Below are positions 3,001 to 50,530 of a DNA stretch of 64,000 nt, one piece after another. A program made the translations under genes and the position numbers. The stretch is from assembly GCA_943735955.1 (NCBI GenBank), contig OX030957.1, forward strand, positions 12,280,017 through 12,344,016. Reading direction: 5' to 3'. The notes below the pieces were generated by a model. It had not been told where the DNA came from and did no database searches. It saw only the letters and a list, made by a program, of their open reading frames with translations. This stretch comes from Piscicola geometra. Its lineage: Eukaryota; Annelida; Clitellata; Hirudinida; Piscicolidae. Numbering within the stretch: the first letter of the stretch is position 1; each line of letters begins with the position of its first letter.

Positions 3001-6000
3001 GCTCGCTATTAAGCTAATAGCGAGCCTTCGTTTATAGCATATACGCATAAGACTAGCATTGTCCTATCAGCGCGATTAAATACAATTTAAAGGGCCATGC
3101 AACTACCTAGCATAGAGAGTAGACATTGAGGCTAGAAATTTTGCATCCAGCGTTTCTGAAAGTGATCCTAATCCAATCTCACATAAAGCATCTTTAATAC
3201 TTGTTAGTTTGTTGTGAAATATACAAAGATTTCTAGTCCTAGCAATAAATCGAGTACTGCTGATTGACATCAGCCTACGATACTTTTTTGTGATGTTCTG
3301 TGTTTTCAAGAAATTTGTCTAATTCTTCCATTTCTCCTTCACTTGACTGTGCAATCTATATTAATGTGATTTAATAATATAAAACTAAGTTATTATAAAT
3401 GATTTCTGATATGCAGCAGAATGGGCCATCAATAAAAGACGTCCACAATTTTTTTTGCTTTTTACCACTCCCCTTTCCTCCTTATCCACTTTTGTCCACT
3501 TTTGACTAAACCCCCTCTCCCTCCCCCTAGTTGTGGACGTCTAAAACATATAATCTACCGAACTTGAATCAATGAACATTTTTTATGTTTTTATATTACT
3601 CACAGCCTGACAGACGCAGGCCATGTTACAAATATTCCAAATGTTTCCTGGTTTTTATGCGCCAGAACGCCACTCCAACGAACGTACACATCTTTCAATG
3701 CATACGTCGCTAATCACCGCATCATATACACCAGGTATATGATAGTTCACGGCTGCTTGTCCGGGATTCGAACTAGCAACCTTTAAGTTGCAAGTCCGAC
3801 CTCTACCATCTAAGCCATCCCCGCTACCCAATTCTTAATGAAATAATAACTGTTCAAAATCATTTTCAGTTAATAAGTGTAATAAAAATGTAACAAACAA
3901 ATTATCCACCATCGTTTAATCACAGGAAAAACTAATTTTTGAGAATTGTTATTTGAGATTTTATTGAGTTGACAAATCAAACTTTAACAACATATTTAAA
4001 AAATAATATTTAAGCGTATTAATTATTATTAAACCTATCGTTTCTAAATATAACCTGTTTGTGAAAGATTGTTTGCGTTTGCATCCCAACTCTTTTGCCA
4101 TTAAACTAGAAGTATTTTGCAGTAAACTTATGCAAAACTACTGCACTCAAAGGTCACTACGCACACAAGTCTAGTATCTTAACTCATTGGCTTATCATCT
4201 CCTGTCTCTATCTGTGGTAGTTCTTCTAGTAGGTGTCTTTCCATAATTGATGTCCGCTGTGCTGACGACGACACACATGAATACACATCCTGGATTTTGC
4301 CAAAACATGAAACTGCTGCTGCACTCTACTCTGTTGCATGGCTTTCAACCAGCTGTAGGTTATGGGACCAGCACTATGTGATGATAGCTCGTGAATATTT
4401 CTCTCGTGTACGGGCTTGCACACCTTGCTTTCTTCCCCTCATGTTCACTCCTCCATCATAGCCCTGGCTAACCATCTGGTCTGAGTTAATTACCATTGTC
4501 TTCAAGAAGTATTGTTGGAAAACTTTCCCAGGTTGAAGAAATAGTTTCAACTATAGCAATAAGACGTTTCTGTGGTATTCCTTTCAAAGTGGAAATTTGA
4601 AATATAGGCGCAATTAAGACTTAAATTCAAGTGCATTTTCATACATATCTGAATTATTATTTTATTGTTGATCTATAATTGTTAAAAAAATATGACATAA
4701 TCATGATAAACTATTGAAAACTGAAAATTAGTCCAAAATAATTATAATTTTACCAGTTTTTTTCCATTTTTATAGCGTACACTGATAGCAACTTGCATCT
4801 TGGTACTAGCATCTGTTGTTTCATCCATTAGAAATATTTCTCTGAATGGTTTATTTGTCAGAAGGATTGGCTTCAAAACTTCTTCAATTGTAAGTTTATC
4901 AAAAATCTTTATGAGACATGTAATTAGGGTTCATTCATGAAATCATCTAAATCTGGCATGAACGACCTGAAACTTTGAAGAAAACTTTGGAAATGACCTT
5001 CAGTACCGCGATCACCATGGAATGCAATATTCTCCATAGCTAACCATCGAAAATGCGGAAGAGACTGGTTAGGCCTTTTCAATTGCGGACTTCCGTGGCG
5101 CTGATAAATTTTTCTTTCACTGTCGAGCAACTCTGGTCATCAAATTGAATAATCCGTTGAGCATCTTTGCAACTCCTCACGTGCACATCACTTGAATCGT
5201 GCTTTGTCGCTTTTTCAATTAGTTTTTTCCAGTCATTTATACCCCAAAACCTGAATTCGTCATTTTTCGATTTGCTAATTGTTAACAACTTGCAATAAAA
5301 ACACTGCGCACCAGCAGTCTAAGGGATTATATTTGACCCAGTTGAATCGATCGTACTACGAGAGCTGAAACGACCGATTCTGGTTATTTTTTGGTATTTT
5401 ATCCAGGGTAATCCTCGTTAAATCAAAACGCAAAATAGCAGCTTGCCACACTAGAACAAATTATCTAAATTATCACTTATCAGACATGAGTTCTTATAGT
5501 AGGTATGCAAGGGCGGATCCAGAGAAGGTCAAATGAAATAACAGCGAAAAATCAAGGTTCCATGTTGTTCTATATAAACTGTGTTGTGGAGGAAAGAATT
5601 TCTTGCTATGGTTGTTGTTGTTGTTGTATTTCGTTGTGTTGTTCAGCAGTCTGGAGAGAATAGTCTCGCTCAGCTGCGCAACCCTGCCAGGCTCTTGAGT
5701 CAGTTCTCTTGTGTTCTTGCCCAGCCCGTGTTCCAGGGCTAGGCAGTCTGTCCAGAGATGAGTTTGTTGTCTCCTGGGCTGTCTTGCAGAGTCTGTCCTG
5801 GCAGGGTGGCCGAAAGTACCCACATTTGAGGCGCAAGCACCCCCCACCGCACCGCGTGGAGGTTGTGGGTATGCGGTAGTCTTGCTATGGTACCAAACTA
5901 TATTCGGGATCTTTGGTACTACAATTGGTAATGTTTTTTCGCGTCTTTTTCTGCTTACAAAAATTATTAAATATTTTTTCGGTCGATTTAATAAATGTTA

Positions 6001-39654: not shown

Positions 39655-41618
39655 TATTATTAATAATAATAATAAAAATCCTTTATATAGCGCTATGGAC
39701 CGCAACAGAAGCGCTTTTTGTCAGGTACTTAGTGGAATGAAATAAAATTAAATTTTAAATGTAAAAAAATTAATTCTTGAAATAAATTACTGAGTAAATG
39801 ACTACAACTGAATGACTAAGTAAATAAGTAAATGAAAGAAGAGAAAATAAGAAGAAAGATGATTAATTAAATGCTAGTTGAAAGTGATGAGTTTTTAATT
39901 GTTTCTTGAATACTGTTAGGGATGTGCTGTTTCTGATGTGTGGTGGTAGGCTGTTCCAGATAGATGGCGATGAGTGGCGGAATGCACGGTTCGCTATGTC
40001 GGTTCTTACAGGAGCTTTAAGTACTGTCGTAGTGGATGATGAACGAAGATGTTGATTGCTGTTTTTGATGGTGAGTAGGTTTATGAGATAAGAGGGCTGA
40101 GATGTTGTAGGGGTTTTAAAAGTGATGGGGGCAATTTTGCAAGGAATGCGAAATTTAACTGGAAGCCAGTGTAGACTTTTTAAATTTTTAGATGAACTGG
40201 TGTGTTGAATAGGTGTTAAATGTTTAAGGCGATTCAAGCGCCTTTGTTCATGATTCGTTGGAGTCGAATTTCTTGTTGATTGAAAAATGTTTTATAGTGT
40301 ACTGTTACAATAATCTAACCTTGATATTACTAAGCATCTGATGAGTGATGAAGCAATAGTTGTTGATAGGAATGGTCTGATATGTTTGATTGCTTTAAGA
40401 TGATAATTACATGATTGAGTTGTTAAGGTGATGTGATTATTGAAGTTTAGCTTTGAGTCGAGTGTGATGTCTAGTGTTTTTAGATGTGTGTTGATTGTGA
40501 TAGGTGTATCCTTGTCAATGGAAATTGACTGTAAATTATCAAGTGATTTCAGTTGTTGTGGAGTACCGAGCTTGATAATCTCTGTTTTTGTAGGATTTAA
40601 TTGCAGATTGTTATGAAGAAACCATGATTCTAGAGATGATATACATGAAATTAATTTGGCAATGTCAGGTGGTGGATTTTTCGGAATGACGGAGTAGAAA
40701 AGCTGAGTATCGTCAGCATATTGGTGGAAGGGCATATTAAATTCTTGAAATATGTGACTGACTGGAGATATGTATGTGGTGAAGAGTAATGGGCCTAAGA
40801 CAGAGCCTTGAGAAACACCATGTTCTAGTTTGACAGTGGAAGAGAAATGATTGCCCATCTTGACATATTGAGAGCGATTGCCCAGATAGGATTTTAACCA
40901 CGATAGAGCAGTGCCATTTATGCTGAAATCAAGGTTGAGTCTGTCAATAAGGATTGAGTGGGTGATGGTATCAAATGCAGTAGAGAGATCAAGGCTGGCC
41001 AAGATGGTGGTGTCTCTTGCGTTGCACGAAGTGAAGGTGCTGTCGAGAATATGTAGGAGGGCAGTCTCAGTGGAGTGATTGGTTCGATATGCAGATTGAT
41101 AGGATGTAAAATTGGGATTTACACTTAGATGAGATTGTAGTCTTTTCAGAGAAAGTCGTTCTATAATTTTTGATAGCGTACTGAGGTTAGATATTGGCCT
41201 GTAATTAGATGGTAGATAAGGTCTGATTTTTTAAGGAGAGGGTTGATTTGAGCCGTTTTTAAATAAGCCGGAAATTGACCTTCAGAGAAGGAGAGATTGG
41301 TAAGATAAGAGAATGCTTCTGATAGCACCTCACTGCAGAGAATGAGATTTTTGTTTGGGTAAGGATCTATAGGAAAATATTTTTTGCATGAGTCGTGCAT
41401 TCTTTTTTTGACCTCTGGTGGAGTGACTATTTCAAAAAGAGTTAGAAATGTTGGAAGGGATGATGTAGTGTGAATGTGGGCATGTGCAAGTTGAATCGTC
41501 GAGAAACGTTTTGCGATGTTTTGATGAAGTGTTTTGATTTTTTAAATAAAAAATTCATTAAATGTGTTAGCTAGTGTCTTGCATTGATTGTTGTTATCTG
41601 ATGACTTGTTGTAGAGAA
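39655..41618 (-). mobile_element. L2/CR1-group LINE, 3' half (RT), interrupted by the I/Ingi-type LINE
   Basis: Minus-strand RT with several frameshifts. 41600-41161 gives LANTFNEFF and LKTAQINPLLKKSDL; 41002-40292 gives LDLSTAFDTITH, GVSQGSVLGPLLF, an intact QYADDTQLF box and the thumb region; 40237-39863 gives SLHWLPVKFRI, PSYLINLLTI and AFRHSSPSIWNSLPPHIRNS ending near QLAFN. The 3' end carries a GCGCTATATAAAGGA tail followed by (ATT)n, typical of L2-like LINEs. The 5' continuation is at 46239-46785 beyond the inserted element. Confidence 0.85.
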
Positions 41619-41632
41619 TGTTGTTGAAGTTG
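41619..41632. repeat. Target-site duplication, 3' side of the I/Ingi-type LINE
   Basis: TGTTGTTGAAGTTG on +, identical over 14 bp to 46225-46238. It follows the (CAA)n tail and rejoins the reading frame of the interrupted L2-like RT. Confidence 0.9.
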
Positions 41633-41646
41633 TTGTTGTTGTTGTT

Positions 41647-44600
41647 TTAGTTCGTTTCGTTGTTCAGCAGTCTGGAGAGGATAACCTCAACCAGCTGCCC
41701 TGCCCTGCCAGGCTCTTGAGTTAATTCTCTTGTGTTCTTGCCCAGCCCGTATACTGCCCTATCTGGTTCCAGGGCTGGGCAGTCTGTCCAGAGATGAGTT
41801 GTTGTCTCATGGGCTGTCTTGAAGAGTCTGCATAAGTCTTCTTGGTCTAGACCAATTCTGCATTGGTAGGCTCTGATCGCCGGGTGGTGCCCTGTACGGA
41901 ACCTTCTCAGGTTGGTGCGAGCAAGTTTGGTGAGCTCTTCTTCAGCTTTTTTGAACCTGCCTTTGTATATGCCATTCAGTCTGTCGTTACTGAAGTGAGT
42001 TTCTTGTGGTCTGTGTCTTGCGACTGCTTGGCAGATCCCTGTTCTCGTTAGTTCCTGGTTTAGCGGGTTTAGCTGTGCCCTGATTCCTGTGGCTGCTTCT
42101 GCGTCAGCCTCATCGTTTCCGATCAGATAGCAGTGGCTTGGCACCCAGATGAAGAGAACCTTTTTGTTCATGTTGGTACACTGTGCAGTTAGCTCTGAGT
42201 TTCGATGGGAGGAGAGAGAGTTGGATGCCATTAGCGAAAGAAGCGGCTTGCAATCGCACACAATCTTTGCCATGCTCCCGTTCTCTCTCTCACTCAACCA
42301 TTTCAGAGCCTCTTCAACCGCAATTCTTTCAGTGTCCATTGGGTTACTCTTGTGTTTTGTGGGCTTGTTCTAGTTAGCTACTTTCTGATCGCTTTGGTAC
42401 ACCACCACCGCAGCACCACCAAGCTTTGCCACTCCTTGCACCGATCCGTCAGTGTAGATGGTAAAGTCAGCTTCGCCTACCTGAGAGATGGCATCTTTAG
42501 CTGCTTCCAGTTGCATGAGATCAGGGTCGTGCTTACTGGATTTGGAGTAGCTAATGTTGAGAGGGAAGTTGAACCAAGGCGGCTTTGGCTCGTATACCGC
42601 TTCGTGCAGTGGGTCTTCTGGGAGAAGTGCCTTTGTTTGGTGAAGGAATTTGGCCCTCCAGCTGTTTTGTTTCAGCTTCTTGGGGACATGTTTCTCTGCA
42701 AGTGACTTCCTCCAGTCTTCCTGCTTGTAGCTCACCCATTTAACAGCCCTTTTGAGGGAAGCTTGTTCAAACCTCGTCTCCATTTTGGCGAGGTCTGCTT
42801 CAACAAGGACAGTTTCAGAGGGCGTTGTTGCTGTAAGACAGGTGAAGATTTTGGCAGCACGAAGTTGGGCCCTTTCAATCTTGGTGATGTGGGTTTTTGA
42901 AGTCCAGGGTGTCCATGCAGGGCTGGCGTATTCCATTATGCTTCTTTGCAGTGCACAATATACACTTCTTAGCCCAGTTCTCTTCCATCCCCACTCCGTT
43001 CCTCCGAGGTTGCGGATGATATTGTCCCGTTTCCTTACCTTGTCCACTATCATGTCTGTGTGATGGCCAAAGTGCAGGAGTCTGTCATATTTGACTCCAA
43101 GAAAGGTCGGGTTCGGTTCGAACGGGAGTGGGATGTTGTTGATGGTGAGCGATGGTTGCCAATTGTGTTCAGAGACTGCTGTGGAGAAGAAGCTGCTCGA
43201 GCACTTGTTGTAGTTTAGGGCGAGGTGGTTTACAGAACTCCAATCCTGAACTTTGTTGATTTCGATTTGGAGTTCTGCCTGGATCTTCAGCTTGTCGTTA
43301 CCCGTGCGTGCAATTGCTAAATTGTCAGCAAAGGCACACACCGTCGAATCTTCCATAAACTTGCTGAGGAGGTCGTTTATGTAGATGACGAAGAGTATGG
43401 GCGACAGTACTGCTCCTTGAGGTAGTCCAGCCCTGAATACTCATGGGTTGCTGAGGTCTCCGTTGTATTTTGCCCTGGCTCGACGGTTGACAAACCACTC
43501 TTTGATGTAGGCAGTGAAGCGAGGAAGGATGCCGATGTCAACCATTTTGTTGAGCAGCCGTTTTCTCCACACAGTGTCGAAGGCTCGGCTGTAGTCGTAC
43601 TGGGTGAGAATGGTGCGTTGCGACGGTTTTGACTGGATCCCATCACTGACTGTTTGTGTGAGACGTAGGCATTGTTCCGTTGTGTCTCTGTCTGATCTGA
43701 ACTCCGACTGGTTGTCGCTCAGTATCTTCTTCTTCTCCAGCCACCACATCAACCTTGCTTTTATCATCTTTTCTAGAAGCTTCCCCACCACTGAGGTAAG
43801 GCTGATCGGGCGGTAGCTTGGCACATCAGCAGGGTTTTTGCCACGTTTCAGGATCGGGATGATGATGGCATCCCGCCATTGCTGAGGGCACTCGCTGCGA
43901 TTCCAGCAGATGTTGAATAGTGTCAGCAGGTGTTGTTGTGCACGGCTGGGTAGGTGTTTCAACATGTCGCTGCTGATGTTGTCAGGTCCGGGGGCTTTGC
44001 CTGTGGAGATGGAGCGGATACCTTGCTGGAGCTCTGACATCGTGAATGCCTTCTCGATCTTTTGCTCGGGGATCAAGCGGGTGTGGTTGAGGTTCCGATT
44101 GATGGAGACCTTAGTTTTCCGATGCTCCTTATCACTCTTGACTTGGTTGATGCTTGCGTTTTCCTGAATGAATGCGTTCGCACGCGCTTTGCTTGTGATG
44201 CAAATGCGGCCTTTGTAAGTGATGGACTTGTCTACGGATGTGCTAGGGTCTCCTCTCAAATTCTTGATCAGCCGCCACGCCTGCTCTGGGTCTCTAGATT
44301 TTCCAATATTGGCAAGCTTAGATCTCCAGATGCGCCCTTTTGCTTCAAGTATGAGCACCTAGAGCCGATCATCTGATTCTTTCCACTTGTGTCTGTCAGG
44401 ATCATATGACCTTGCCCAGTTCCTGACCCTGATGGCTTCTTCTATTTGGGCCGTCATCCAGGGGATGAAGCTTTGCCTTCTTTTCTTCTTAGGAATGAAG
44501 GATTCAGCCGATTCCAGGACGATGCTGCACCATTCGTTGTAGAAGAGCTTCACCGGTTGGTTCGTGTCCACTCCTGGCATTGCATCATCAACTGAGTTGG

Positions 44601-46170
44601 AAAAGCCATTCCAATCAGCCTTGGAGTAGTTAAACTTCCACTCGCTGACGGGTTTTCCGGCTGGACATCTGTCGAACCAACGGATGATGATCGGGATGTG
44701 GTCTGACGAGAGGGCATTGTCAGTGCTCCATTGGATCTGGTGGGCTTTGCTGCTGTGGCAGATGGTGACGTCGGGTGTTGAGGGTTTGGTGCTGCTCCTC
44801 GAGAACCTCGTCGGTGCACCGTCGTTGACTACCAGAAGTTTGTTGTTGTCGACCCATTCCTGGAGCAATGTGCCTCTGACATCAGCTGGCGATACGGGGT
44901 CCCACAGTGGATTGTGAGCGTTGAAGTCACCTGCGATGATGCCTTCTTGGGGTACTGGCATAAGATGAAACGCCGGCTTCTGTTCACAATGGTCATTTGC
45001 TGTTTTCCTGGTTGGTGGGCAGTAGATGTTTGTGAAGCAGATCTCTTTGTCTCCGTTGAGCACAACTACGCTGAGGAGTTCGATTGTGGATGCGGACAGT
45101 TCGGCTGTGCGGTGGTACGGGATTCCTTTTCTTATTAGGGTAATCAGCCCTCCACCACGTGTCTCGTAGCCTTGTCTCGCATGCTGTCGATCAAGCCTCT
45201 CGATGTTGTATTCGTAAAAGATCGGCGTTCGGTCTTTTGGCAGGAGTTTGGTCTTTTGAAGCAGAACGATGTCGGGGGCTTTACGATGCAACCATTCTTC
45301 GAGCTCGTCTTTTTTGCTCCATATGCCGTCGCAGTTCCACTGGATCACCAACACTGTGTCTTTTGTTGTTTTGATCACAGGTTGCTTGATTGAGCCTTCG
45401 TGCTTCTGCAGCTGGATTGGAGTGGTCGCTTGATTTGCTCGATCGTCGCATCTCTGGCAGCTCCATGTCCCATTGAGGCGCATGTCTTCGAGTGTTGGCC
45501 TTGGTTGCGTTGCACACTTGAAGTGGTGCGTCTTTTTGCACACGGCACATATGAGAGGTATCTTGCTTGCTCTAACGGTTTTCCCGCAACTTGGGCATGG
45601 TTGTTTGTGCGTGTGTTGAGTTGGTGGGTTGGGCTGCTGCGTAGGATGCGCCACTTGCGTTGTGTCGGAGGGGTCAGCCTGTTGGGTTGGAGTGCAACTG
45701 TCGCAGCTCCAGTTTGTCGGAGTTTGTTGCCTGCTTTGTCCTGAGCATATTTTGTGGAAATTGCCTTTGCGCTGCACGCATTGGGTTGGTAAGGTGCTTC
45801 TCCTGATGGTGTTGCCACAGTGTGAGCATTGCAGATGTGGTTGGCTCAACAAATGGCTTGTGACGTTTGTTGACGTTTGGGAGTTGCTGACGCTCTGGTT
45901 CTGGTCATTTGGGACAACTTGGTTTCGTGATAGGTGTGAGCATGTCGCATGTGCTGGATGATGGCAAACTGAGCACAGTATTGGGCGTGTGTTGACTCGG
46001 ATGGTTTTACCGCACACAAAGCATTTATTGTTGTTGTTGATATTGGGTCCAGGGTTGGACTCAATGTCTCCGGCCTGTTGTGACATGGGCAGTAGTGCGG
46101 CCAGTGCCACTACTGTCTTTAGAGAAAAAAAGCTGTTTTGGCCTGGCAGGGTGGCTGAGAGTACCCACAT
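41647..46170 (-). pseudogene. Single ORF of the I/Ingi-type LINE: zinc fingers, endonuclease, RT, RNase H (three nonsense codons)
   Basis: One frame runs from ATG 46170-46168 to the stop at 41647 (about 1507 residues) without a frameshift, broken by three stops: TAG 44359-44361, TGA 43441-43443 and TAG 42370-42372. Domains in order: a leader ending in GDIESNPGP; CxxC...CxxC...HxxC modules (CFVCGKTIR, CSHCGNTIR, CPSCGKTVR); endonuclease (VIQWNCDGIWS, GDFNAHNPLWD, SSDHIPI); RT (LQQGIRSISTGKAPGPDNIS, SYRPISLTSVVGKLLEKM, GLPQGAVLSPILF, FADN box); RNase H (YTDGSVQG, the Glu of ERIAVEEAL, WVPSHCYLIGNDEADAEA); and a C-terminal Cys/His patch. The RT box is FADN where FADD is normal, so this copy is probably catalytically dead. 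Conceptual ORFs starting at 46407 are artefacts: their first 79 codons come from the host LINE and the ribozyme. Confidence 0.9.
46045..46071 (-). other. 2A-like ribosome-skipping motif in the LINE leader
   Basis: Codons here read GDIESNPGP, the D-[IV]-E-x-N-P-G-P signature of 2A peptides, preceded by a hydrophobic stretch (VVALAALLPMSQQ) as in known 2As. It sits about 42 residues after the predicted start at 46170. By family knowledge the ribosome would skip between Gly and the last Pro, releasing a short leader from the zinc-finger polyprotein. Function is inferred. Confidence 0.8.
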
Positions 46171-46224
46171 TCGAGGCGCAAGCGCCCCCCACCGCACCGC
46201 GTGGAGGTTGTGGGTATGCGGCAG
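46162..46224 (-). ncRNA. HDV-like self-cleaving ribozyme at the LINE 5' end
   Basis: The first 63 nt fold as a nested double pseudoknot. P1 (7 bp): 46224-46218 CTGCCGC with 46195-46189 GCGGTGG. P2 (8 bp): 46216-46209 TACCCACA with 46169-46162 TGTGGGTA. P3 (3 bp): 46208-46206 ACC with 46198-46196 GGT, closing L3 TCCACGC (HDV has TCCTCGC). P4 (4 bp): 46186-46183 GGCG with 46178-46175 CGCC and a CTTG loop. J4/2 contains CGAA at 46173-46170, matching the CNRA rule, so C46173 is the predicted catalytic cytosine. P1 starts on the first base after the target duplication, which is where such ribozymes cut. The ORF start codon lies at the J4/2-P2 border. Confidence 0.85.
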
Positions 46225-46238
46225 TGTTGTTGAAGTTG
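46225..46238. repeat. Target-site duplication, 5' side of the I/Ingi-type LINE
   Basis: The second copy of the 14-bp duplication, directly abutting P1 of the ribozyme. Because the junction is exact, the 5' end of the element is fixed at 46224. Confidence 0.9.
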
Positions 46239-49674: not shown

Positions 49675-50530
49675 CTATATGGTGATGGACTTAGTAGGGT
49701 AGTTATTATCAAGAATAGTAGTAAGGGTATTATAAAAGAAATCGATGGAGTCAGGTAAGTTGTCTAAGTTGATTGTTAAGTCTGTGGCTGATAAGGAGTC
49801 GAGGCAAGTTTTGTGTTGGGATGGATGACGTCGACGAAATGTATGGGTTTGACGGGTGATGAGTTTATTAGATGAATTATTGTTAATTAAGGGATTAATG
49901 GACACACCAAGGTGCTTGGTGGTGGTGTGGGAGATGTATGTTTGTGAGATGTAGAGGTTGTTGTTAATGTTGGATCCATACACTCGGTCAAGGTTGTGTC
50001 CTAGGTGAGTGGGGCCGTAGAAGATGGGTTGGAGGCCAGAGTGAAGAATTTTTTGGTGTGGAAGTTGGTTGAAGTCACCACCAATGATAAACGTAGAGTC
50101 ATTGTCCAACATGGAATTGGACAACTCATCAATGTAGTCCATCAAGGTGGACTCTAGGTAAGTATGTTTTGGAGGGTGATAGATGCCGCATATGTGGTGG
50201 GGGATGTTATTGAATATGCACTTGAGGCATAGTACCTCTAGTGCATTGTCATTAGTCAGAGATGAAGTGGTTATAATATGAGCGGGGATGTCTTGTTTGA
50301 TGTAGATCATGACCCCTCTCCCTCGCCTAGTGATGCGGTCGTGCCTGAAGCACACGTAGCCCTTGATTGCCACAAGAGCATCGCTGTGGTGGGGCTTGAG
50401 CCATGTCTCGGTGATGATGATGATGTCTGGATGAAGGTGAAAAACATCACAGCGAAGATGTTCAATGGCATGGGGTTTGACGATGCTGGTGATGTTGAGG
50501 ATGCAGATAGAAGGAGGTTAATACACATTT
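49675..50530 (-). pseudogene. LINE apurinic-type endonuclease domain, isolated
   Basis: Minus-strand frame with DIIIITETWLKPHHSDA, RRGRGVMIYIK, HICGIYHPPKHTY, GGDFNQLPHQKILHSGLQ, PTHLGHNLDRVYGSN and a SxTTTKHLGVSI end in place of SDH. The family is a non-LTR endonuclease of the exonuclease-endonuclease-phosphatase fold. No reverse transcriptase follows: the frame stops at 49675 and AT-rich DNA continues. It belongs to a different LINE from the L2-like one nearby. An upstream frame (50778-50518) may be its 5' ORF remnant. Confidence 0.75.

What the first reader, a model, noticed from the sequence alone, without database searches (positions are those of the whole stretch)
46162..46224. HDV-like self-cleaving ribozyme exactly at the 5' end of an animal I/Ingi-type LINE
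Seen: a full nested double pseudoknot (P1 7 bp, P2 8 bp, P3 3 bp, P4 4 bp), an L3 loop one base from that of HDV, and a CNRA motif in J4/2. P1 begins on the first base after an exact target duplication. Known: R2, RTE and trypanosomatid L1Tc elements carry such ribozymes to release their 5' ends. Inference: this lineage uses the same strategy with an RNase H-bearing LINE.
Basis: partly seen in the sequence, partly recalled or inferred. Interest (0 to 1): 0.87.

Follow-up and report, generated by a model that had tools for sequence, protein, structure and literature searches.

The report
HDV-like ribozyme starting an animal LINE
A family of jumping genes in an animal genome begins exactly with a small RNA that very probably cuts itself, a known way to trim a copied element out of a longer transcript, here in a layout so far best known from trypanosome parasites.

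Summary
On the minus strand, 46224→46162 folds as an HDV-like double pseudoknot: P1 7, P2 8, P3 3, P1.1 2 and P4 4 bp, L3 UCCACGC, and CGAA with the presumed catalytic C at 46173. It starts on the first base after an exact target duplication. A strict descriptor finds two loci in the window, both at 5' junctions of this family, against one locus in 300 shuffled windows. The genome has 193 core matches. The key result is a second LINE family (RT 33–35% identical in near-full-length hits) with its own ribozyme within a base of its 5' end. Of 20 shared pairs, 13 changed on both sides and none is broken. Each family's model finds the other (E 0.0024 and 0.0046). The element is a single-ORF APE–RT–RNase H LINE with an N-terminal 2A motif and a ribozyme-bearing short derivative, the layout of trypanosomatid L1Tc/NARTc. 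Such ribozymes at LINE 5' ends are known, so this is a new member of a known kind. Cleavage was not tested, and Ingi-clade membership could not be.

The parts
46162..46224 (-). HDV-like ribozyme (P1, P2, P3, P1.1, P4, J4/2); predicted cleavage between 46225 and 46224
   Evidence: Pair check; descriptor; CM R2 built only from the second family hits 46226-46161 minus at E 0.0046
46189..46224 (-). P1: 46224-46218 with 46195-46189 (7 bp)
46162..46216 (-). P2: 46216-46209 with 46169-46162 (8 bp)
46196..46208 (-). P3: 46208-46206 with 46198-46196, closing L3 UCCACGC (46205-46199); L3 46204-46203 can pair with 46188-46187 (P1.1)
46175..46186 (-). P4: 46186-46183 with 46178-46175
46170..46173 (-). CNRA motif (CGAA) of J4/2; C46173 is the predicted catalytic cytosine
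   Evidence: role of this cytosine by analogy with HDV C75 (recalled)
46225..46238 (.). target site duplication, 5' side
41619..41632 (.). target site duplication, 3' side (first 1-4 nt on the minus strand could be element tail)
41633..46224 (-). family 1 LINE, full length; one coding frame broken by in-frame stops at 44361-44359 (TAG), 43443-43441 (TGA) and 42372-42370 (TAG); ends in a (CAA)n tail
   Evidence: five other matches lie in open frames of 1544-1609 aa, stop to stop
46168..46170 (-). AUG overlapping the J4/2-P2 junction of the ribozyme; in frame with the ORF in this copy and in 5 of 16 other distinct versions
46045..46068 (-). 2A (StopGo)-like motif DIESNPGP after a hydrophobic N-terminus
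   Evidence: 14 of the 120 listed protein relatives also carry an NPGP motif within their first 100 residues
45448..45597 (-). PHD-like zinc finger (PF00628); a further C/H-rich finger lies at 46023-45940
44686..45345 (-). APE-type endonuclease (PF03372/PF14529)
43189..43833 (-). reverse transcriptase (PF00078), interrupted by the stop at 43443-43441
42082..42468 (-). RNase H, interrupted by the stop at 42372-42370; pieces below Pfam cut-off here, whole domain above it (41.8 bits) in copy L071
5613..5879 (-). internally deleted non-autonomous copy: ribozyme plus the 3' end of the LINE and its CAA tail
5880..5891 (.). target duplication of the non-autonomous copy, 5' side (minus ACCATAGCAAGA); its second copy is 5601-5612

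Best explanation
The 63 nt are an HDV-like self-cleaving ribozyme that defines the 5' end of a LINE RNA. The element is transcribed as part of a longer host transcript, or from an upstream start. The ribozyme folds co-transcriptionally and cuts just 5' of P1 (46225|46224, minus), using C46173 as general acid, and leaves an element RNA with a 5'-OH and no cap. That RNA is translated into a 2A-led APE–RT–RNase H protein and is copied by target-primed reverse transcription into CAA-rich sites, so each full-length insertion begins at P1. The same ribozyme on the short derivative lets it be processed and mobilised in the same way. Shown: the fold, its exact junction position in independent insertions, and its presence with compensatory change in a second LINE family. 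Inferred: cleavage, co-transcription, and trans-mobilisation of the short copies.
For: (1) Complete fold with all helices, L3 and CNRA. (2) The strict descriptor hits only the two element junctions in 64 kb and 1 locus in 300 shuffles. (3) The 5' boundary sits on P1 in 47 distinct family 1 copies: column +1 is C in 47 of 47, while upstream columns are a CAA-rich mix, none above 0.89 of one base (copies whose match began after base 6 or ended before base 58 were dropped beforehand). Both window copies have exact target duplications. (4) A second family (RT 33–35% identical in near-full-length hits) has a ribozyme at its 5' end, found by a model of family 1 alone (19.8 bits, E 0.0024). The reciprocal model finds 46226-46161 (E 0.0046). 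Of 20 shared pairs, 13 changed on both sides, 1 on one side, 6 are the same and 0 are broken. L3 is 6 of 7 identical and CGAA is kept. (5) Copies of other LINEs (L110, L111, L114) give no descriptor or model hit. (6) Predicted catalytic C kept in 45 of 47 family 1 copies (one C-to-U change; one indel-shifted copy read out of register) and in 34 of 37 family 2 copies. (7) 193 core matches genome-wide with up to 2 mismatches, control pattern 0; 75 for family 2 with up to 3, control 0.
Against: No cleavage data. No Rfam family at gathering score, and the second-family ribozyme gives no HDV-type Rfam hit even at E 10. Within families there is no covariation beyond chance: 1 double change in A1, which 49 of 500 shuffles reach, and 0 in A3, where paired cells are no higher than in shuffles. 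Three family 2 copies at different insertions (L099, L102, L105) share the change C52 to G, so a line with an altered catalytic base did spread. MFE folding gives no signal, and the nested MFE of family 2 is a different fold. Only 12 of 38 further family 2 copies meet the full descriptor.
Confidence: 0.86

Rival explanations
1. The conserved 5' end is mainly an internal DNA promoter, as in trypanosomatid Pr77, and the fold is incidental.
For: Pr77 of L1Tc is both promoter and ribozyme (PMC4035085 Background section; PMC4748587 passages). The 5' ends of both families are strongly conserved.
Against: A promoter alone does not explain 13 of 20 pairs changing on both sides while pairing is kept and L3 and CNRA stay nearly fixed. 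The two functions could coexist; promoter activity was not examined here.
Confidence: 0.06
2. The sequence was once a ribozyme but is now only a structured, partly translated leader; cleavage is lost in current copies.
For: A catalytic C52 to G line spread to three loci. The reading frame runs into the ribozyme in both families.
Against: The family 1 copies nearest to the intact ones keep every helix, L3 and CAAA, and 45 of 47 copies keep the catalytic C.
Confidence: 0.06
3. Chance pseudoknot in a GC-rich 5' leader.
For: Rfam scores are below threshold and MFE z-scores are near zero.
Against: Descriptor rate of 1 in 300 shuffled windows, exact junction position, and a second family with compensatory changes found by model.
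Confidence: 0.02

Closest known systems
L1Tc / NARTc (ingi clade) of Trypanosoma cruzi, with the Pr77 ribozyme L1TcRz
   Same: HDV-like ribozyme at the exact 5' end, 2A sequence, APE, RT and RNase H, and a short internally deleted partner with the same 5' end (PMC4035085 Background section; PMC4748587 passages).
   Different: Animal host. Zinc fingers lie between 2A and the endonuclease. Flanks of insertions are CAA-rich. Promoter activity was not examined. Clade identity was not tested, and no L1Tc sequence was compared.
R2, R4, R6, Dong, RTE, SART and Baggins ribozymes of animal LINEs
   Same: HDV-like ribozyme at or near the LINE 5' end in animals (passage of PMC11620745; passages of PMC3774820). 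Dong is a close analogue in use: upstream TAA repeats and cleavage at the 5' end.
   Different: Different LINE families, and no 2A is mentioned for them in the passages seen. Their sequences were not compared here.
HDV ribozyme (RF00094) and drz-agam-1 (RF01787)
   Same: Fold, L3 one base from the HDV consensus, CNRA, P1.1.
   Different: Scores of 17.9 and 15.8 bits are far under the gathering scores of 50 and 37. P4 is very short.
2A-bearing APE-type LINEs of multicellular organisms
   Same: N-terminal 2A motif; the reference list of PMC12846837 (passage) cites Odon 2013 for such LINEs. Here 14 of 120 listed relatives carry an NPGP motif.
   Different: Odon 2013 itself is not held, so its families could not be compared. 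Whether those elements have ribozymes was not tested.

Membership tests
HDV-like self-cleaving ribozymes | Nested double pseudoknot P1/P2/P3/P1.1/P4 | tested here: met
HDV-like self-cleaving ribozymes | Conserved L3 and CNRA with catalytic C in J4/2 | tested here: met
   (C in 45 of 47 family 1 copies and 34 of 37 family 2 copies)
HDV-like self-cleaving ribozymes | Compensatory changes across relatives | tested here: met
   Between two families, 13 of 20 pairs changed on both sides. Within families no excess over shuffles.
HDV-like self-cleaving ribozymes | Self-cleavage 5' of P1 | not testable with these tools
   needs an in vitro assay
Rfam RF00094 / RF02682 / RF01787 as curated families | Score at or above the gathering threshold | tested here: not met
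   17.9 of 50, 18.2 of 44, 15.8 of 37 bits; so not filed as a member of these Rfam entries
Non-LTR retrotransposon (LINE), APE-RT-RNase H type | APE, RT and RNase H in one ORF, target duplications | tested here: met
   family 1. RNase H of family 2 was not established.
Ingi clade | RT phylogeny groups with reference ingi/L1Tc | not testable with these tools
   No named ingi, L1Tc or I reference among the 120 listed hits. A tree of 73 rows (70 of those 120, both families and one outgroup) puts families 1 and 2 in one 15-row group (support 90/85) of otherwise unnamed relatives.
Ingi clade | L1Tc-like layout: 5' HDV-like ribozyme, 2A, APE-RT-RNase H, ribozyme-bearing short derivative | tested here: met
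   searches compared
Ingi clade | C-terminal zinc-finger chaperone of the L1Tc type | tested here: inconclusive
   A C-x2-C-x8-H-x4-C motif is visible by eye near the C-terminus (sequence); not compared with L1Tc

The most novel reading that the evidence does not exclude
The cassette of 5' HDV-like ribozyme, 2A and APE–RT–RNase H, with a ribozyme-bearing short partner, is an ancient architecture of one LINE lineage shared by trypanosomatids and animals. In the animal families the ribozyme is also coding sequence: translation of the uncapped, self-cleaved RNA starts inside the ribozyme. The in-frame AUG lies at the 5' strand of P2 in family 2 (11 of 21 copies with AUG and an open frame) and at the J4/2-P2 junction in some family 1 copies, while the family 1 copies nearest the intact ones have the frame open into the ribozyme and may use a non-AUG start.
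Probability: 0.27. Interest if true: 0.67.

Novelty: new member of a known kind. Interest (0 to 1): 0.48.

Why it matters
It adds two animal LINE families to those whose RNA 5' ends are very probably made by an HDV-like ribozyme, with compensatory changes between them. It shows in an animal the L1Tc/NARTc layout (ribozyme, 2A, RNase H LINE and ribozyme-bearing short partner). That makes testable whether the layout is inherited from before the split of trypanosomatids and animals or was reached twice. The reading frame runs into the ribozyme in both families, which makes it testable whether a ribozyme can also be the translated leader. It also gives ribozymes below Rfam thresholds that could seed better search models.

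Tried and rejected
Within-family covariation as proof: rejected, because columns are on average 95-97% identical and copies mostly decay on their own. Alignment A1 holds 19 of the 22 variants; three (from L049, L017 and the indel copy L022) were left out, so its paired percentage is slightly flattered. An early reading that the second family lacks a ribozyme (note) was wrong: L070 is cut off at the CAA tract, and L069 carries the ribozyme further upstream. A draft statement that family 2 starts at an ordinary AUG after its ribozyme was also wrong: that AUG (AAAGATGGG) is out of frame in 20 of the 20 copies that have it (21 examined), and the in-frame AUG lies in the ribozyme (one search parsed only 12 of 21, all 21). 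AUG inside the ribozyme as a general start in family 1: only partly upheld. Of 16 distinct versions listed (identical 150-nt stretches counted once, and the script's pattern does not match the window copy itself), 5 have it in frame with 2A (one, L023, then meets a stop) and 11 do not. In family 2, 13 of 21 copies have that codon in frame (one with AUA in place of AUG, one with a stop after it) and 8 do not. A viral-contig scan for DNA of relatives found none. Naming the species by a host ORF gave no homologs; Wnt matches show only that it is an animal. A TSD test over 27 copies with both ends in hand gave 22 with at least 8 matching bases, but CAA-rich targets make most of these weak, so only the two window copies are leaned on. 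Candidates for further related families (L113, L114, L115) gave no new ribozyme; L113 is family 2 and partly withheld, so uninformative. MFE folding was uninformative. Literature: searches on ribozyme and Ingi in animals (3 papers listed) and ribozyme and 2A in LINEs (2 unrelated papers) showed, in titles and abstract starts, no report for animal Ingi-like LINEs; Ruminski 2011 and Odon 2013 are not held, so absence from print is not claimed.

Full report
What is in the sequence. The finding lies on the minus strand. Read 5' to 3' from 46224 the RNA is CUGCCGCAUACCCACAACCUCCACGCGGUGCGGUGGGGGGCGCUUGCGCCUCGAAUGUGGGUAC. All pairs of P1 (7), P2 (8), P3 (3), P1.1 (2) and P4 (4) are standard pairs. 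L3 is UCCACGC, and J4/2 holds CGAA with its C at 46173. Rfam finds nothing at gathering thresholds in the window. Below threshold its ribozyme matches on this stretch are HDV-F-prausnitzii (18.2 bits), HDV (17.9) and drz-agam-1 (15.8).

Junction. The minus-strand LINE runs from 46224 to about 41633. An exact 14-nt repeat lies at 46238-46225 and 41632-41619. The LINE ends in a (CAA)n tail, so up to 4 nt of the repeat could belong to the tail, but the 5' junction is sharp. A second copy in the same window, 5879-5613 minus, is an internally deleted derivative made of the ribozyme and the 3' end, with its own exact repeat ACCATAGCAAGA on both sides. Its 5' junction is again the first base of P1.

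Chance. A descriptor (P1 at least 6, P2 at least 5, P3 of 3, L3 NYCNNGN, P1.1, P4 at least 4, CNRA) over both strands of the window gives two loci, 46224 and 5879, and no others. In 300 windows shuffled within 200-nt blocks it gives one locus; this control keeps local base composition but not dinucleotides. A first run of 12 shuffles without the L3 rule gave 8 loci in all, and none with it.

Other copies. The window lies in a 171-Mb genome of 66 contigs. Wnt-family matches (55) show it is an animal. The ribozyme core pattern, with up to 2 mismatches, has 193 matches (102 + 91) against 0 for the reversed-pattern control. Among the fetched copies, 47 distinct ones align from near position 1 (copies whose match began after base 6 or ended before base 58 were dropped). 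Position +1 is C in 47 of 47, while upstream positions are a CAA-rich mix with at most 0.89 of one base. Five RT matches lie in open frames of 1544-1609 aa, stop to stop. Of 27 copies in which both ends could be paired, 18 measure 253 nt from the ribozyme start to the last matched base before the tail.

The second family, the main new evidence. An RT search of the genome shows a second family at 33-35% identity in near-full-length hits. The model R1, built from family 1 with P2, P3 and P4 only, finds in its copy L069 a match at 1676-1737 (19.8 bits, E 0.0024). The fold there starts at L069:1674: P1 AACGGC/GUCGUU, P2 GGUCC/GGACC, P3 GCC/GGC, L3 UUCACGC, P1.1 UC/GG, P4 UGCC-UUCG-GGCA, J4/2 CGAA. 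The strict descriptor hits L069 once, at 1674. A further 38 copies were fetched. Conservation begins at AACGGC within about one base, because position -1 is C in 34 of 38, which fits either the CAA target or one more element base. The reciprocal model R2, built from 37 of the 39 family 2 copies (L109 with a truncated 5' end and L084 with an indel were left out), finds 46226-46161 in the window at E 0.0046 and nothing else up to E 10 among 84,836 bases; it did not find the short copy at 5879. E-values of these models are rough. Across the two families 20 pairs can be matched: 13 are changed on both sides, 1 on one side, 6 are the same and none is broken; all six shared P1 pairs changed on both sides. 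The matching of helices was made by hand.

Tests that did not help or went against. Within family 1 (19 of 22 variants) 98.0% of cells pair, against 34-58% for slid structures, but there is one double change, which 49 of 500 shuffles match. Within family 2 (31 distinct rows) 95.0% of cells pair, against 34-48% slid, with no double change and no more pairing than in shuffles. That is what independent decay of dead copies gives. Three family 2 copies at different sites share C52 to G, so an element with an altered catalytic base did spread. Only 12 of 38 further family 2 copies still meet the full descriptor. The family 2 ribozyme gets no HDV-type Rfam hit even at E 10. MFE folding, which cannot make pseudoknots, is uninformative. 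Negative controls behaved: copies of other LINEs, L110, L111 and L114, give no hit.

The element. Copy L071 has RVT_1 (128 bits), APE-type endonuclease, RNase H (41.8 bits, above cut-off) and PHD-type fingers in one ORF of 1567 aa. The window copy is the same with three in-frame stops. Its N-terminus holds DIESNPGP (46068-46045), a 2A-like motif; family 2 has GDVHPNPGP. RNase H was not established for family 2. Among the 120 listed relatives (of 623 found), 14 have an NPGP motif, all within their first 100 residues. In an RT tree of 73 rows (70 of the 120, both families, one outgroup), families 1 and 2 fall in one group of 15 (support 90/85) with several 2A-bearing relatives. No named I, ingi or L1Tc reference was among the hits, so the clade name stays open.

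Translation start. In the window copy an AUG (46170-46168) overlaps the J4/2-P2 junction and is in frame with 2A. Of 16 other distinct versions listed, 5 have this AUG in frame (one, L023, then meets a stop) and 11 do not. Seven near-identical versions, among them the intact L071 element (as L032), have it out of frame, with the frame open back into or through the ribozyme and, in the stretch printed, no other AUG until six codons before the DIESNPGP core. In family 2, 21 copies were examined. The AUG at ribozyme positions 10-12 (J1/2 and the first base of P2) is in frame with 2A in 13 of 21; in one of these the codon is AUA and in one a stop follows, leaving 11 with AUG and an open frame. In 8 of 21 it is out of frame. 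The next AUG downstream, between ribozyme and 2A, is out of frame in 20 of 20 copies that have it. So in both families the 2A-led reading frame runs back into the ribozyme in most copies examined. Whether translation starts there is unknown.

Mechanism. By analogy with R2, Dong and L1Tc (PMC3774820 passages; PMC4035085 Background section), the ribozyme trims the 5' end of a co-transcript so that the element RNA starts exactly at P1, and reverse transcription to that end gives insertions that begin there. The junction data fit this. Cleavage itself is not shown.

What is known. HDV-like ribozymes are reported in R2, R4, R6, RTE, SART, Baggins and L1Tc (PMC11620745 passage). L1Tc has ribozyme, 2A, APE, RT and RNase H, and its short partner NARTc has the ribozyme too. 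So the kind is known, and RNase H is not a new context. What is added is two animal families with compensatory change, family 1 in the L1Tc/NARTc layout. Searches for earlier reports in the held library showed none for animal Ingi-like LINEs in the titles and abstract starts listed, but key papers are not held, so priority is not claimed.

Noticed in passing
window 5613-5879 (minus): Internally deleted short copy of the same LINE (ribozyme plus 3' end), with a 12-nt exact target duplication; an animal counterpart of NARTc/RIME-type elements. 18 of 27 end-paired copies have this 253-nt form.
   Followed up: yes
window 46045-46068 (minus); L069 1875-1898: 2A (StopGo)-like motif after the ribozyme in both families; in family 1 it follows a hydrophobic stretch, somewhat like the signal-type 2A sequences of PMC4981915 (abstract and passages seen).
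   Followed up: partly
46170-46168 in the window; ribozyme positions 10-12 in family 2: In both families the 2A-led reading frame runs back into the ribozyme, and an in-frame AUG lies inside the ribozyme in part of the copies; start of translation unexplained.
   Followed up: partly
L099, L102, L105: Three family 2 copies at different insertion sites share a change of the predicted catalytic cytosine to G, suggesting that a line with an altered ribozyme still spread.
   Followed up: no
5' flanks of both families: Both LINE families sit in CAA-rich sequence, and family 1 carries a CAA tail, much as Dong elements sit in TAA repeats.
   Followed up: partly
L056: Two short copies in tandem, the second starting directly in the CAA tail of the first: insertion into the family's own tail can build arrays.
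   Followed up: no
L069 about 1816-1852: In family 2 a 13-bp hairpin (one G-U; by eye) lies between ribozyme and 2A, inside the reading frame.
   Followed up: no
window 40292-41230 and 49675-50517 (minus): Remnants of another LINE type (RT and endonuclease ORFs, CR1/L2/Rex-like by eye), with no ribozyme hit in the window scan.
   Followed up: no
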